DNA of 64,000 bases from Chryseobacterium glaciei. GTDB taxonomy: Bacteria > Bacteroidota > Bacteroidia > Flavobacteriales > Weeksellaceae. Positions 12,096 to 30,101 of the stretch are shown here, in pieces. The stretch lies in contig NZ_CP015199.1 of NCBI RefSeq assembly GCF_001648155.1, positions 248,001-312,000 on the forward strand. The letters are read 5' to 3'. The translations under genes and the position numbers were made by a program. The stretch's first letter is position 1. Every line of letters starts with the position of its first letter. The notes beneath the pieces are model-generated. The model saw only the letters and a program-made list of their open reading frames with translations, searched no databases and was not told where the DNA came from.

Positions 12096-15000
12096 ATGAA
12101 AAAAATATTTTTATTCAACATAGTATTGTTTGTAGCAGGATTATCTTATGCACAGACAAGCACCGAAAACTATATACAGACAACGAACTGCCTTGATGCA
12201 GACTGTATCAAAAAAGCAGAAACCGTACAATATTTTGATTATCTGGGAAGACCTAAACAGATCGTCAGCGTAAAATCTTCGCCTACAGGAAAAGATATTG
12301 TATCTCATGTAGAATATGATGTGCTGGGAAGACAGACCAAAAGTTATCTTCCTGTTCCGCAAGCAGGAACTCAGAATGGAGAAATCTACACCTCTCCACT
12401 CTCTAACGCTCCCACTCATTATGGTGGAGAAAAGATCTACACAGAAAAGATACTTGAAAACTCTCCGCTGGAAAGGATTTTGCAGCAAAAACAGGTCGGA
12501 AATGCATGGGCAGATAAACCCGTAAATTTTGGATATGACCTTAACACCGCAGCCGATCATGTAAAAAAATATGATCCCACAACCAACTGGAATTCTACAG
12601 AGAAAATATATACTCAGGAACTTCCCCCTGCTTCGGAATATCCGGCAGGACAATTGGTGAAAAATACCGTTACCGATGAAGATGGAAATTCAACCATAGA
12701 ATTTAAAGAAGGTTCGGGACAAACTGTATTAATACGAAAAGCTGTAAGCACTTCTCAAAATGCAGATACTTATTATGTGTATAATGAGTATAAGCAGCTG
12801 GCTTTCGTAATTCCGCCATTGGCTTCTGCTTTAGCGTCTGTTTCGGCTACAGCTATGGATAATCTTTGTTACCAATACAGATATGACAGTAAAAGCAGGC
12901 TCGTAGAAAAGAAACTGCCCGGAAAAGGATGGGAATATCTAGTGTATGATAAACAAAACAGATTGGTGCTGTCTCAGGATGCCAATTTAAGATCTGTCAT
13001 CAACAATTTTGCCCAAAAAGGTTGGACGTTCATCAAATACGATTCTTTCGGGAGAGTAGTTTACACAGGATTCTTTGCCAATACTGCAACAAGAATAGCA
13101 ATGCAGACCGCTATTAATAATATGGTATCCAATGCAGGAAACAACGAGCAGAGAGATAATAACACACCTATTATACAGGATAGTGAAAATATTTATTATA
13201 CCAAAAATGCATTTCCTACAGGAAGCATGACTATTTTATCTGTTAATTATTATGATACCTATCCATCACTTCCTTCGGAGGTGAGCATTCCGTCTGCCGT
13301 TATCGGCCAGCAGGTATTGAAACAGCCTGGACAAAGCACAACGGGTAAAAATACCAGAACATTACCATTGGCTTCGTATGTGAGAAATGTGGAAGACAAA
13401 GCATGGACAAAAAGCTACACTTATTACGATGAAAAAGGAAGAGCTATCGGCTCTTATGCTCTTAATCATTTAGGAGGGTATACCAAAACAGAATCTGAGC
13501 TTGATTTTGCAGGACTTGCAAAGCAAACTAAAGTATATCACAAAAGATTAAATACCGATACTGAAAAAGTAATTATCCAAACCTATACTTATGACAGCCA
13601 AAACAGATTATTGGTTCAGAAACATAAGGTTGACAATAATACGGAAGAGATTTTAGCTCAAAATGAGTATAATGAACTTTCGCAGTTAAAAAATAAGAAA
13701 GTCGGCGGTACAAATACCGCAACTCCACTTCAAAGTATTGATTATGTCTATAATATCCGAGGATGGCTCACCAAGATCAATGATCCTGCTGATCTCAATG
13801 GGAAACTGTTCGGGTATGAAATGAGATATAATAATCCTGTGAATCCTAATATTGCATCGGGAAAATTCAACGGAAATATTACAGAAGTTGATTGGAAAAA
13901 CGCTTCCGAAGATGTATTAAAAAGATACGATTATTCTTATGATAATCTCAACAGATTGCAGGATGCTGTTTATTCTGAGCCCAACTCTACGACTCCGTTT
14001 AATAATAATTTTAACGAAAGCCTAACGTATGATCTGAACGGAAATATTTCTACTTTAAAAAGAAATGCCTTCCCAATTTCAGGAAACACGTCAACATTGG
14101 TAGATGATCTTATTTACGAATACACAGGAAACCGCTTAACAAAAGTGCGTGAAACCGCTTTGAATAACACAGGCTACGAAGGAGGAAACAACGTAATAGC
14201 TTATGACCTGAACGGAAACATGACGGATATGAAGGATAAAGGTATTCAGGCTATAAATTATAATTATTTAGACCTACCTAATAGTCTTTCCATCACCCAG
14301 ACAAATCCACTGGGTAAGGTCTCCAATACAAATATCAATTATCTGTACCGTGCTGACGGAACAAAGCTTCGTAAAACCTACAATAATACAGGTGATATGG
14401 GAGCGTCAATCAGCCGTATGACAGATTATCTGGATGGATTTCAATATTCCTATGAGGATAATGGTAACGGCATGGGCTGCATAACATGCAGAACAGAAGT
14501 TGCCTACGAAGCACAGGCCTATAAAAAAGGAATAATCGGAGGCCCACTTCCTACAATGCCGGAATGGAAACTTAGTTTTGTTCCTACTTCAGAAGGGTTT
14601 TACAGTTTCGCCGAAAACCGTTATATTTACCAATACAAAGATCATTTAGGAAACACAAGAGTAAGTTTTGCTAAAAACAGCGCAGGCGTTCTTCAGACTA
14701 CAGATACCAATAACTTCTATCCGTTTGGATTAAGTCATATTGGAGGTTCAGCAGCTTCTAATTTTGGAAACTATTATTCTTACAAGTATAACGGTAAAGA
14801 GCTTCAAGAGACAGGGTTCTATGACTATGGCGCAAGATTTTATATGCCGGATATCGGACGTTGGGGCGTAATGGACGCAATGTCTGAAAAATACAGAAGA
14901 CACAGTCCTTATAATTATGCAGTAAATAACCCGATCATGTTTATTGATCCCGATGGTAATGATGTTTTGTATGGCTTAGATGCACAAAATGCAGTAAGAG

Positions 15001-15755
15001 CGATGCAAGCAAATATGTCTACGAGTTCTGAAGCTTCGGGAAATAGTAATTATTTTACTGGGTTTAACTTTAATCGATTTGGTGACGGAAATCCACCTAA
15101 CTTTTTGGAGCGTGTAGGAAATTTCATTAGCAGCCTTTTTGGTACTAAGAAAAAAGGAGGAGAAATAACTGAATTTGGGCCTTTCGAAAAAGTTCCTTTT
15201 GATTATTCCCCTGATGGGAGCAGGTTATTCGGATTAATACAAAATGCTTATTATAACCCGATGGCTGAGTATAGAGAAAAACGAGATAATCCATTCTATA
15301 ATGCAGGTGAATCAAGCTTAGACAGATCTTTTAGATTAATGAACAGCTCCCACATAGAAATAATGCAAGACTTTGGTGGCGGCGGTTACAATATGTTTGG
15401 TGGATATGGTAGAGGTATAGCTGTAGCTGAAGAGATGTCCATAACTTCAAAAATTGCTGCAGAAGCTGAGGCAAATGGTATTTTGAGCTCTCAAAAAGGA
15501 ATTAATCCAGCTAAAGTTGCGGAATATTTTGAACAAATGTCAAACGGTACATATAAACCTACTGGAGGAGCAGGATATATCTATGAAGGAAAATATATTT
15601 TGACAGATGGAAACCATAGAATGAATGCAGCTATCCAACATGGGGTAGAAACTGGTAACTTTAAATATGTTGAGCAACTTATTAACAAAGGAAACTTTAT
15701 AAGAAGAAATCCTTTTTTAGATAATTATAAAGTTTATAAACTACCTGTAAAATAA
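12096..15755 (+). CDS. Rhs core protein with C-terminal ParB-like toxin tip
   Basis: The 1219-aa protein has a signal peptide (MKKIFLFNIVLFVAGLSYAQ), then a conserved N-terminal region with FDYLGRPKQIV and many YD repeats (YDSKSRLVEKKLPGKGWEYL). The Rhs-associated core starts near residue 845 (YKDHLGNTRVSF). It continues through YKYNGKEL (about 896), YDYGARFYMPDIGRWGVMD (about 905-925) and NPIMFIDPDGN (about 943-953). The variable tip occupies about 955-1219. It contains TDGNHRMNAAIQHG near residue 1170, the D-G-N-H-R motif of ParB/sulfiredoxin-fold domains, suggesting a nuclease or NTP-dependent toxin. The next gene, 4 bp away, is the likely immunity. The core at 14780-14783 (TTAC) is the point where two downstream cassettes join recombinase elements. 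Confidence 0.88.
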   Translation: MKKIFLFNIVLFVAGLSYAQTSTENYIQTTNCLDADCIKKAETVQYFDYLGRPKQIVSVKSSPTGKDIVSHVEYDVLGRQTKSYLPVPQAGTQNGEIYTSPLSNAPTHYGGEKIYTEKILENSPLERILQQKQVGNAWADKPVNFGYDLNTAADHVKKYDPTTNWNSTEKIYTQELPPASEYPAGQLVKNTVTDEDGNSTIEFKEGSGQTVLIRKAVSTSQNADTYYVYNEYKQLAFVIPPLASALASVSATAMDNLCYQYRYDSKSRLVEKKLPGKGWEYLVYDKQNRLVLSQDANLRSVINNFAQKGWTFIKYDSFGRVVYTGFFANTATRIAMQTAINNMVSNAGNNEQRDNNTPIIQDSENIYYTKNAFPTGSMTILSVNYYDTYPSLPSEVSIPSAVIGQQVLKQPGQSTTGKNTRTLPLASYVRNVEDKAWTKSYTYYDEKGRAIGSYALNHLGGYTKTESELDFAGLAKQTKVYHKRLNTDTEKVIIQTYTYDSQNRLLVQKHKVDNNTEEILAQNEYNELSQLKNKKVGGTNTATPLQSIDYVYNIRGWLTKINDPADLNGKLFGYEMRYNNPVNPNIASGKFNGNITEVDWKNASEDVLKRYDYSYDNLNRLQDAVYSEPNSTTPFNNNFNESLTYDLNGNISTLKRNAFPISGNTSTLVDDLIYEYTGNRLTKVRETALNNTGYEGGNNVIAYDLNGNMTDMKDKGIQAINYNYLDLPNSLSITQTNPLGKVSNTNINYLYRADGTKLRKTYNNTGDMGASISRMTDYLDGFQYSYEDNGNGMGCITCRTEVAYEAQAYKKGIIGGPLPTMPEWKLSFVPTSEGFYSFAENRYIYQYKDHLGNTRVSFAKNSAGVLQTTDTNNFYPFGLSHIGGSAASNFGNYYSYKYNGKELQETGFYDYGARFYMPDIGRWGVMDAMSEKYRRHSPYNYAVNNPIMFIDPDGNDVLYGLDAQNAVRAMQANMSTSSEASGNSNYFTGFNFNRFGDGNPPNFLERVGNFISSLFGTKKKGGEITEFGPFEKVPFDYSPDGSRLFGLIQNAYYNPMAEYREKRDNPFYNAGESSLDRSFRLMNSSHIEIMQDFGGGGYNMFGGYGRGIAVAEEMSITSKIAAEAEANGILSSQKGINPAKVAEYFEQMSNGTYKPTGGAGYIYEGKYILTDGNHRMNAAIQHGVETGNFKYVEQLINKGNFIRRNPFLDNYKVYKLPVK

Positions 15756-15759
15756 AACT

Positions 15760-29581: not shown

Positions 29582-29585
29582 TATA

Positions 29586-30101
29586 ATGAAAAAACAATTT
29601 TTAATTTTAATAATATTGGCATTTTGTTTTTTAAACTGCAATCCTTTATATAAACAATATAAAGATTTAGCATTAATTAATCGTCAAAAAAAATTTAGTT
29701 ATGCAACTAAGGGAATTATCCGAAAAATATTAGCTAAGCATGATAATAAAAATAGTTTATTTATAATATCTTGGAAAAATAATGTATTTGACAAAGAAAA
29801 ACTTGTATTTGATGCTATAATATACGATTATAACTTGAAAACGATTGAATATATTTATAATACTCAAAGTACCCAAAATAAAATAATTTCTTCAACTCAC
29901 AAACCCTCCGCATATTTTGACGATGAATTATTTATCCTAAATAATTATATTGCAGAAAAAGAAGAGTATTTATTATCACTCCATGATTCTTTTAGTAGTT
30001 CAGATGCAGGTAGTTATTTTTATATCTATGATTTTTCTAAAAATAAAAAATTAAAAATCAGTGCTATAGCTTTTGATAAAAATGGAAAATTAATTCAATA
30101 G
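29586..30101 (+). CDS. Lipoprotein immunity candidate for tip 3
   Basis: This 171-aa AT-rich gene is 4 bp behind tip 3. A KK start, a hydrophobic core and a lipobox (F-L-N-C-N, Cys about 18) mark a lipoprotein; I recognise no domain in the remainder. As for tip 2, a membrane-anchored partner behind a peptidase tip suggests protection in the envelope. The role is inferred from position. Confidence 0.62.
   Translation: MKKQFLILIILAFCFLNCNPLYKQYKDLALINRQKKFSYATKGIIRKILAKHDNKNSLFIISWKNNVFDKEKLVFDAIIYDYNLKTIEYIYNTQSTQNKIISSTHKPSAYFDDELFILNNYIAEKEEYLLSLHDSFSSSDAGSYFYIYDFSKNKKLKISAIAFDKNGKLIQ

What the first reader, a model, noticed from the sequence alone, without database searches (positions are those of the whole stretch)
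14780..30101. Rhs toxin gene with two silent toxin/immunity cassettes, each preceded by the same recombinase-primase element
Seen directly: one complete Rhs gene (tip 1 and immunity), then [element][tip 2][immunity 2][element][tip 3][immunity 3], all in the same direction. Both orphan tips begin inside the Rhs core, right at the element's right end. Orphan rhs tips beside rhs genes are known from Enterobacteriaceae, where they are attributed to homologous recombination. What stands out here is that each orphan tip is coupled to an identical 5.5-kb unit with its own repressor, primase-ATPase and pair of tyrosine recombinases. Inference: a dedicated mobile tip-switching or tip-delivery system.
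Basis: partly seen in the sequence, partly recalled or inferred. Interest (0 to 1): 0.95.

Follow-up and report, generated by a model that had tools for sequence, protein, structure and literature searches.

The report
Mobile toxin-tip cassettes for Rhs genes
A family of recombinase-carrying DNA elements sits at fixed codons inside the genes of large Rhs weapon proteins, each together with a predicted toxin tip and antidote gene, and likely works by inserting there so that the new tip is expressed while the old one is pushed into silent storage behind it.

Summary
It is [tip][immunity][element], not [element][tip][immunity], and is bounded on both sides by the same codons of the Rhs core. Window units: 14781-21796 and 21797-28681; tip3/imm3 (28682-30101) is the oldest, displaced end. 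The element (HTH, CHC2 primase-ATPase, two tyrosine recombinases, right-end arm) recurs in related genomes. Among 36 testable close relatives, 33 are followed by an rhs core end, and 31 joints could be pinned to a defined motif in an rhs frame. In 12 genomes one element end is joined at the same base to different rhs 3' ends. In six, tandem copies start exactly at the joint. On a recombinase tree every target motif is one clade. Nine units have only tip, a predicted immunity ORF and the arm, like integron cassettes. An in-frame stop just before the joint silences most displaced tips. Best explanation: site-specific integration swaps the active tip and stacks old ones. Excision and circles were not seen, and tips also move by other recombination (one clear case). 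Nine library searches found no description; [quoted passage not shown]

The parts
9219..12017 (+). upstream partner gene of the rhs gene (932 aa, Rhs-type by eye); context
   Evidence: ORF; no NCBIfam family; upstream order shared with G100
12096..15755 (+). full-length rhs gene: core up to 14780, tip1 from 14781
   Evidence: DUF6443, Rhs_assc_core TIGR03696 at residues 885-954
14781..14794 (+). attL: core|tip1 joint, codons Y K Y N G (TACAAGTATAACGG)
   Evidence: same codon as the element|tip joints at 21797 and 28682
14781..21796 (+). mobile unit 1: [tip1][imm1][element copy A], 7,016 bp (inferred unit)
   Evidence: unit limits from tandem units in relatives
15760..16296 (+). imm1, predicted immunity gene (178 aa, no family)
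   Evidence: position; no significant Pfam, NCBIfam or PADLOC match
16323..21796 (+). element copy A (conserved from about 16317/16323)
16408..16740 (-). HTH_3 repressor-like gene of element A
   Evidence: Pfam HTH_3 4e-18
16900..19338 (+). CHC2/Toprim primase with AAA-type ATPase half (812 aa), element A
   Evidence: Zn_ribbon_DnaG 3e-15, Toprim_2 9.1e-12, weak AAA; dnaG domain 2.3e-34
19398..20222 (+). TR1, tyrosine recombinase with complete catalytic set, element A
   Evidence: Phage_integrase 7.5e-31; catalytic columns
20219..21082 (+). TR2, tyrosine recombinase lacking the first catalytic Arg; start overlaps TR1 stop (ATGA), element A
21700..21796 (+). right-end arm of element A (about), with an in-frame TGA six codons before the joint
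   Evidence: conserved in autonomous and solo units; frame
21797..22687 (+). attR1 and displaced tip2 (core stub plus Tox-MPTase3-like metallopeptidase; ORF from ATG 21860)
22693..23115 (+). imm2, predicted lipoprotein immunity gene
   Evidence: ORF; lipobox read by eye
21797..28681 (+). mobile unit 2: [tip2][imm2][element copy B], 6,885 bp (inferred unit)
23208..28681 (+). element copy B (HTH 23293-23625 -, primase 23785-26223, TR1 26283-27107, TR2 27104-27967, right-end arm to 28681)
28682..29581 (+). attR2 and displaced tip3 (core stub plus Peptidase_M91-like domain; ORF from 28748), oldest tip of the stack
29586..30101 (+). imm3, predicted lipoprotein immunity gene; 77% DNA relative in the distal position at a matching G074 locus
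30111..30509 (+). rhs core fragment followed by a short repeat: older debris of the locus
   Evidence: RHScore match 52%; 30447-30491 = 23158-23202, 96%

Best explanation
Each unit [toxin tip][immunity][element] is likely a circularising integrative element whose recombinases insert it at a fixed codon of the rhs core, so that its own tip would become the expressed C-terminus and the previous tip and antidote would be left downstream, behind the element. Shown by sequence: the unit's limits, the exact shared joint, the open frame across the left joint, the in-frame stop before most right joints, repeated stacking, clade-specific target motifs in rhs genes, and solo units with tip, predicted immunity ORF and right-end arm only. 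Inferred: a circular intermediate; TR1 as the catalytic recombinase with TR2 as a catalytically reduced partner; the primase copying or priming the excised DNA; the HTH protein as repressor; solo units moved in trans or deletion relics; excision as the reverse path that re-exposes a stored tip; toxin and immunity functions of tips 1-3. In the window tip1 would be the newest arrival, tip2 the former and tip3 the oldest. Homologous exchange of tips runs alongside.
For: (1) Tandem copies with the same cargo are alike from exactly the joint on, with rhs core left of the first and element end left of the next: G275, G207, G098, G072 (second copy truncated), G575, G384. (2) One element end is joined at the same base to different rhs 3' sequences in 12 genomes: G000, G024, G236, G158, G098, G207, G275, G221, G057, G088, G384, G515. 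The element end shows no similarity to the core upstream of the site in these alignments. (3) Close set: Rhs core end on the right in 33 of 36 testable elements, on the left in 30 of 32. Joints pinned in 31 of 36: YKYNG 20, ETGMYDYG 5, GGGGS 3, NIDPLAEKY 1, VLNNPLM 1, VAGLNHAMH 1. (4) TR1 tree of 29 rows with pinned joints: 7 label changes, the least possible, against 13.5 shuffled (0 of 200 as low); each target with two or more rows is one side of a branch. (5) Right-end pattern: 25 sites in 16 of 171 genomes, reversed control 0; all 25 run into an rhs core end. (6) Nine arms without primase or recombinase match in the stretch, each behind a tip frame and an ORF of 80-198 aa. (7) Stop within 8 codons before the joint in 22 of 24 class I right ends and 9 of 9 solo ends. 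(8) TR1 catalytic residues kept in 62-65 of 65, tandem copies included. (9) An ORF of 108-179 aa follows the tip in 11 of 11 class I first units checked. (10) G074 keeps an imm3 relative distal to a decayed stub, with a different proximal tip.
Against: No circle, alternative junction or same-species empty site was seen; the unit is inferred from integrated copies, one genome per species. No relative on phages or viral contigs; only distant ones on plasmids. Five of 36 close joints could not be pinned (G004 twice, G171, G539, G584). Distant relatives of the primase-recombinase pair occur off rhs genes (G029, G440, G386); two G626 elements show no Rhs end on short contigs. Tips also move without the joint: the solo units of G057 and G123 share tip and immunity at 97-100%, but similarity starts about 60-120 bp right of the joint and stops well before the arm. 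On a first tree with unlabelled rows counted as a group, two small target labels were not clustered. Tandem copies, and identical window elements with different cargo, may partly reflect unequal crossing-over or gene conversion (left ends differ slightly). Few bases left of the joint are shared, so a classical 6-8 bp identical overlap is not evident.
Confidence: 0.83

Rival explanations
1. Ordinary rhs C-terminal displacement by homologous recombination (Jackson 2009 model); the element is a passenger.
For: Core stubs of about 180 bp are shared and could recombine; orphan tips with longer core fragments and no element end occur in the same loci (e.g. L049, L052, L059); G057 and G123 share tip and immunity with a left break inside the stub. 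This process probably runs alongside.
Against: The joint is at one base with no similarity on its element side, meets different rhs ends in 12 genomes, and its place follows the recombinase clade.
Confidence: 0.09
2. One reading: unit [element][tip][immunity] added downstream of the resident immunity gene.
For: Reads naturally in the window; element and following tip are adjacent.
Against: Tandem copies start at the core joint, not at an immunity|element joint; solo units have tip and ORF before the arm; the left borders compared in four genomes show no obvious shared site.
Confidence: 0.03
3. The element alone (5.5 kb) is the mobile part and the tips reach it by other means.
For: Window elements are identical while cargo differs; left borders of like elements with different cargo vary; cargo exchange inside the unit was seen for solo units.
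Against: Core directly followed by element was not seen; where an Rhs end was found on the left in the close set (30 of 32) it lay about 1.5-5 kb before the primase, with the tip between.
Confidence: 0.08
4. Once-mobile relics: units inserted in the past by site-specific recombination but now spread only by descent and homologous exchange.
For: Broken primases (G048, G101), a stub with a stop (L038), a mini element in G100, cargo exchange away from the joint.
Against: TR1 residues intact in nearly all; near-identical copies in many genomes suggest recent activity.
Confidence: 0.11

Closest known systems
Rhs C-terminal tip displacement in Enterobacteriaceae (Jackson et al. 2009, PMC2935791; passages seen)
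   Same: New tip displaces the old one, which is kept silent downstream; a circular intermediate is proposed.
   Different: [quoted passage not shown] Here each autonomous unit carries recombinases, a precise joint and a primase.
Integron and gene cassettes (recalled; integron papers seen in a search listing only)
   Same: Tyrosine recombinase, cassettes ending in a recombination site, insertion next to the expressed position, newest first, cassettes without own recombinase.
   Different: Target is codons inside a protein gene, giving a fusion; many units carry their own recombinases and primase; no attC fold was tested; TR1 scores below the cut-offs of the integron and Xer models.
rAID recombinase-associated immunity arrays of Bacteroidales (PMC12247911; passages seen)
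   Same: Tyrosine recombinase next to arrays of genes against antibacterial toxins in Bacteroidota.
   Different: Orphan immunity genes in an array; no toxin tips, rhs fusion or primase in the passages seen.
[quoted passage not shown] passages seen)
   Same: Orphan pairs in arrays; site-specific recombination suggested in general terms.
   Different: No defined unit, att site in the carrier gene or target-specific recombinase in the passages seen.
RHS tip sharing between Ornithobacterium hominis and Bergeyella cardium (PMC13183296; passages seen)
   Same: Related hosts (same family, recalled); tip plus immunity gene shared between species with different RHS genes; arrays of orphan tips.
   Different: Ascribed to Jackson-type displacement; no recombinase unit in the passages seen.

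Membership tests
Tyrosine-recombinase integrative element | Encodes a tyrosine recombinase with the R-HxxR-H-Y set | tested here: met
   TR1: R 65, H 63, R 63, H 62, Y 63 of 65 (tandem copies included); TR2 has the first R in 2 of 65 and Y in 55 of 65
Tyrosine-recombinase integrative element | Integrates at a specific site, with direct-repeat att sites at both ends | tested here: met
   Same joint at both ends of units in six genomes with tandem rhs units; 31 of 36 close joints pinned (with 23, 24, 75, 82)
Tyrosine-recombinase integrative element | Excises as a circle | not testable with these tools
   No reads held; no close relative on plasmids, phages or viral contigs
Integron | IntI-type integrase with a fixed platform gene outside the cassettes | tested here: not met
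   Recombinases lie inside the units; integron integrase model far under cut-off (TIGR02249 114.6 vs 265 bits)
Integron | Cassettes carry a folded attC site | not tested
   Right-end arm conserved but its fold was not examined
Integron | Cassettes without own recombinase | tested here: met
   Nine arms without recombinase match; six follow a full-length or contig-cut rhs gene, three an orphan stub; mobility untested and cargo exchange away from the joint seen
Rhs polymorphic toxin locus | Rhs core with variable C-terminal toxin and adjacent immunity gene | tested here: met
   DUF6443, TIGR03696; metallopeptidase-like tips 2 and 3; toxicity untested
rAID | Recombinase followed by array of orphan immunity genes without toxins | tested here: not met
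   Each unit carries a tip with its neighbour ORF

The most novel reading that the evidence does not exclude
Rhs genes of Flavobacteriales are integrons for protein domains: the core's conserved codons act as the attachment site, units with their own recombinases and solo tip-immunity cassettes served in trans are both captured there, the last arrival is the one expressed, stored tips can be brought back by excision and re-insertion, and the primase with one active and one reduced recombinase points to a copy-out, paste-in route that leaves the donor stack intact.
Probability: 0.35. Interest if true: 0.94.

Novelty: new variant of a known kind. Interest (0 to 1): 0.86.

Why it matters
How polymorphic toxins gain new tips, and how the proposed circular tip carriers arise, has been open since Jackson 2009, who noted that no integrase was known to accompany Rhs (passages). 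Here seven motifs in rhs genes are used by distinct recombinase clades or lineages, so tip replacement looks like the element's way of life. That turns an evolutionary question into a testable recombination reaction. It also gives an order-of-arrival reading for orphan tip arrays, and a domain-level analogue of integron cassettes.

Tried and rejected
Rejected: the [element][tip][imm] parse (tandem and solo units contradict it). Rejected: purely homologous displacement for element-bearing joints; but kept as a second process. Not useful: plasmid, phage and viral collections. The named-genome scan gave three loci (Chryseobacterium aurantiacum, C. gambrini, Epilithonimonas hominis). Looking for an empty site: G100 has the same upstream genes but a mini element; G074 has the distal imm3 relative; no empty/filled pair of one species could be had. 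A first recombinase alignment kept only 14 elements because of an over-strict filter; replaced by 65 of 73. A first tree had 18 unlabelled rows counted as a group and three labels taken from HMM starts; replaced by 29 rows with pinned joints, where long branches meet and near copies help clustering, as the tool warns. Contig lengths in the protein search (best 120 of 945 listed) bunch near 7.0-7.5 kb, the unit size; circles, collapsed tandems or repeat-bounded contigs could all do that, so no weight was put on it. The 51% primase cut-off was set after seeing the table; both sets are reported. From that table 4 duplicate rows and 7 rows with primase but no recombinase match were dropped. The table holds 64 fetched regions plus the window; five further regions and many weaker hits were not used. 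The right-end pattern includes nine bases of the rhs side, so its link to rhs is partly built in, and it misses the window's second end. Papers: only passages or listings were seen; 'not described' rests on these searches of an open-access library.

One search then showed tip exchange away from the joint, so confidence went from 0.85 to 0.83 and the novel case from 0.40 to 0.35.
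Full report
What is there. The window lies in a 4.87-Mb genome (G000:C1:248001-312000). Its genus (173 genomes searched) includes a Chryseobacterium: G022's contig length equals that of C. aurantiacum. A two-gene Rhs set (9219-12017 and 12096-15755) ends in tip1, followed by a predicted immunity gene. Then come a 5.5-kb element, tip2, its partner, a second element copy, tip3 and its partner. The elements are identical over 5,400 bases and nearly so at the left edge. 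Each has an HTH gene on the minus strand, a CHC2/Toprim primase with an ATPase half, and two tyrosine recombinases overlapping by ATGA.

The joint. In the full gene the codons Y-K-Y-N-G begin at 14781. The same codon position begins at 21797 and 28682 directly after the element end. The two element ends are identical up to and including TAC and then diverge at once.

Which way the unit reads. In relatives, tandem copies with the same cargo are alike from exactly this joint on. On the left of the first copy lies rhs core; on the left of the next lies the element end (G275, G207, G098, G072; G575, G384; in G072 the second copy is cut short). The repeating unit is therefore tip, immunity, element. 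In G098 near-identical units are followed by a last, different tip. Serial insertion at the core site would leave this.

How general. TR2 relatives of 54-73% identity occur in 13 further genomes of the 320 of the family, often in pairs 7-11 kb apart. Primase relatives occur in 27 of 395 order genomes at E 1e-50, the own genome and other families included (two candidates per genome scored). I mapped 64 regions around such hits plus the window (18, 31, 32). In the close set (primase at least 51%; 49 elements, 29 genomes), 33 of 36 elements with at least 2.5 kb downstream have an rhs core end before the next element, and 30 of 32 have one upstream. Pinning the joint itself worked for 31 of the 36: YKYNG 20, ETGMYDYG 5, GGGGS 3, and one each of NIDPLAEKY, VLNNPLM and VAGLNHAMH. 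The five not pinned are G004 (two), G171, G539 and G584. The three without a core-end match (G088, G283, one of G236) are among the pinned: their motifs lie beyond the HMM. In the outer set (24 elements, 18 genomes) the figures are 14 of 18 right and 11 of 18 left. Clear exceptions there are G029, with other cargo genes, and G440, in a non-Rhs carrier.

Target choice follows the recombinase. Class I ends at YKYNG; a second clade ends 22-24 bp further on, at ETGMYDYG; G575, G384 and G515, of another family, end at YYPFG. The primase stays 71-82% identical between class I and II while TR2 falls to about 31%. On a TR1 tree of the 29 distinct rows with pinned joints the labels need 7 changes, the least possible (shuffled mean 13.5, 0 of 200 as low); YKYNG (15 rows), ETGMYDYG (5), YYPFG (3) and GGGGS (2) are each one side of a branch. 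The first tree, with unlabelled rows, had shown two small labels unclustered.

Why homologous recombination does not explain the joints. Within one genome the same element end meets different rhs 3' parts at the same base in 12 genomes. The element side shows no similarity to the core, so a site-specific reaction is the simple way to put the break there repeatedly. Homologous exchange still acts: orphan tips with longer core fragments and no element end are common. The solo units of G057 and G123 share tip and immunity at 97-100%, while the first 60 bp after the joint are 77% alike and the stretch before the arm is unrelated. The sameness of the two window elements with different cargo may be gene conversion.

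Solo units. A degenerate right-end pattern gave 25 sites in 16 of 171 genus genomes and none for the reversed pattern. All 25 run into an rhs core end (14 seen, one of them cut by a contig end; 11). Of the 11 newly fetched, nine lie in stretches with neither primase nor recombinase matches (one has an HTH relic), 1.3-3.7 kb from the preceding joint; two are cut by contig ends. Six of the nine follow a full-length or contig-cut rhs gene, three an orphan stub. In all nine a tip frame is followed by an ORF of 80-198 aa. The arm is conserved over about 40-90 bp in most of both kinds, less in L209. G100, whose upstream genes match the window's, has a mini element with only a terminator-like left piece and the arm. 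Whether solo units are served in trans or are relics is open.

Silencing and order. Of 22 core|tip rows, 16 have at least 862 open codons upstream and all have at least 245 downstream; the other six are orphan fragments. At right ends the arm places an in-frame stop within eight codons before the joint in 22 of 24 class I ends (not in G275's two) and in 9 of 9 solo ends. Tip3-type domains are fused to full cores elsewhere (open frames of 1,185-1,295 aa in G034, G159, G226, G092), as are tip1-type domains (G105, G080), so the stored tips are of a kind used as active tips. At a matching G074 locus an imm3 relative (77% over 546 bp) lies distal to a decayed stub while the proximal tip differs, as a last-in, first-expressed stack predicts. 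This is one case, and its right flank does not match the window's.

Mechanism, with what is inferred. TR1 keeps the catalytic set. TR2 lacks the first catalytic arginine in 63 of 65 and the tyrosine in some (8 Phe), so it is probably an accessory partner. Circle formation, repression by the HTH protein, and primase action on excised DNA are inferences. A one-active-recombinase reaction completed by copying would fit the primase and the near-identical tandem copies, but this is speculation.

Known or new. [quoted passage not shown] Zhang 2012 notes cassettes and XerC/D genes near polyimmunity loci (passages). rAID couples a recombinase to immunity arrays (passages). CDI arrays with intervening integrases are mentioned in general terms (passages). 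A 2026 paper on Ornithobacterium hominis reports shared RHS tips and cites displacement (passages). Nine searches of the library showed no description of this unit. It works like an integron crossed with Rhs tip displacement, but it is not an integron by the tests above.

Noticed in passing
window 30111-31289: An rhs core fragment, a short repeat (23158-23202 and 30447-30491, 96% alike) and a small IS-like transposase ORF (30645-31289, by eye) lie behind tip3: older debris of the locus.
   Followed up: partly
window 44698-58289: Several dispersed repeats of about 85-120 bp (44698, 47281, 48213, 56860; 48446 and 58169) and palindromes (54887-54969 and others) in the self-comparison.
   Followed up: no
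window 45407-45500: Flavo-1 RNA family match, 69.3 bits, E 3.9e-13.
   Followed up: no
L122 (G440:C1:820000-839999): Distant relative of the unit in tandem at a non-Rhs carrier ORF (3116-3901): identity of copies starts inside the ORF, which suggests C-terminal replacement in another carrier type.
   Followed up: partly
L063, L065 (G029, G072): Related recombinase-primase elements with large other cargo (a sulfurtransferase-like 'GFSGGKDSTVLL' protein in G029, by eye); in G029 without rhs.
   Followed up: no
L204 and L208 (G057, G123): Near-identical tip and immunity in two species with breaks away from the joint: a tip moved by another route.
   Followed up: partly
protein search: Among the 120 listed TR2 relatives many have a longest contig of 7.0-7.5 kb, the unit length.
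   Followed up: no
TR2 set: Eight of 65 TR2 proteins have Phe in place of the catalytic Tyr.
   Followed up: no
window 22693-23115 and 29586-30101: Both partners of the metallopeptidase-like tips look like lipoproteins (by eye), which would fit toxins acting outside the cytoplasm.
   Followed up: no
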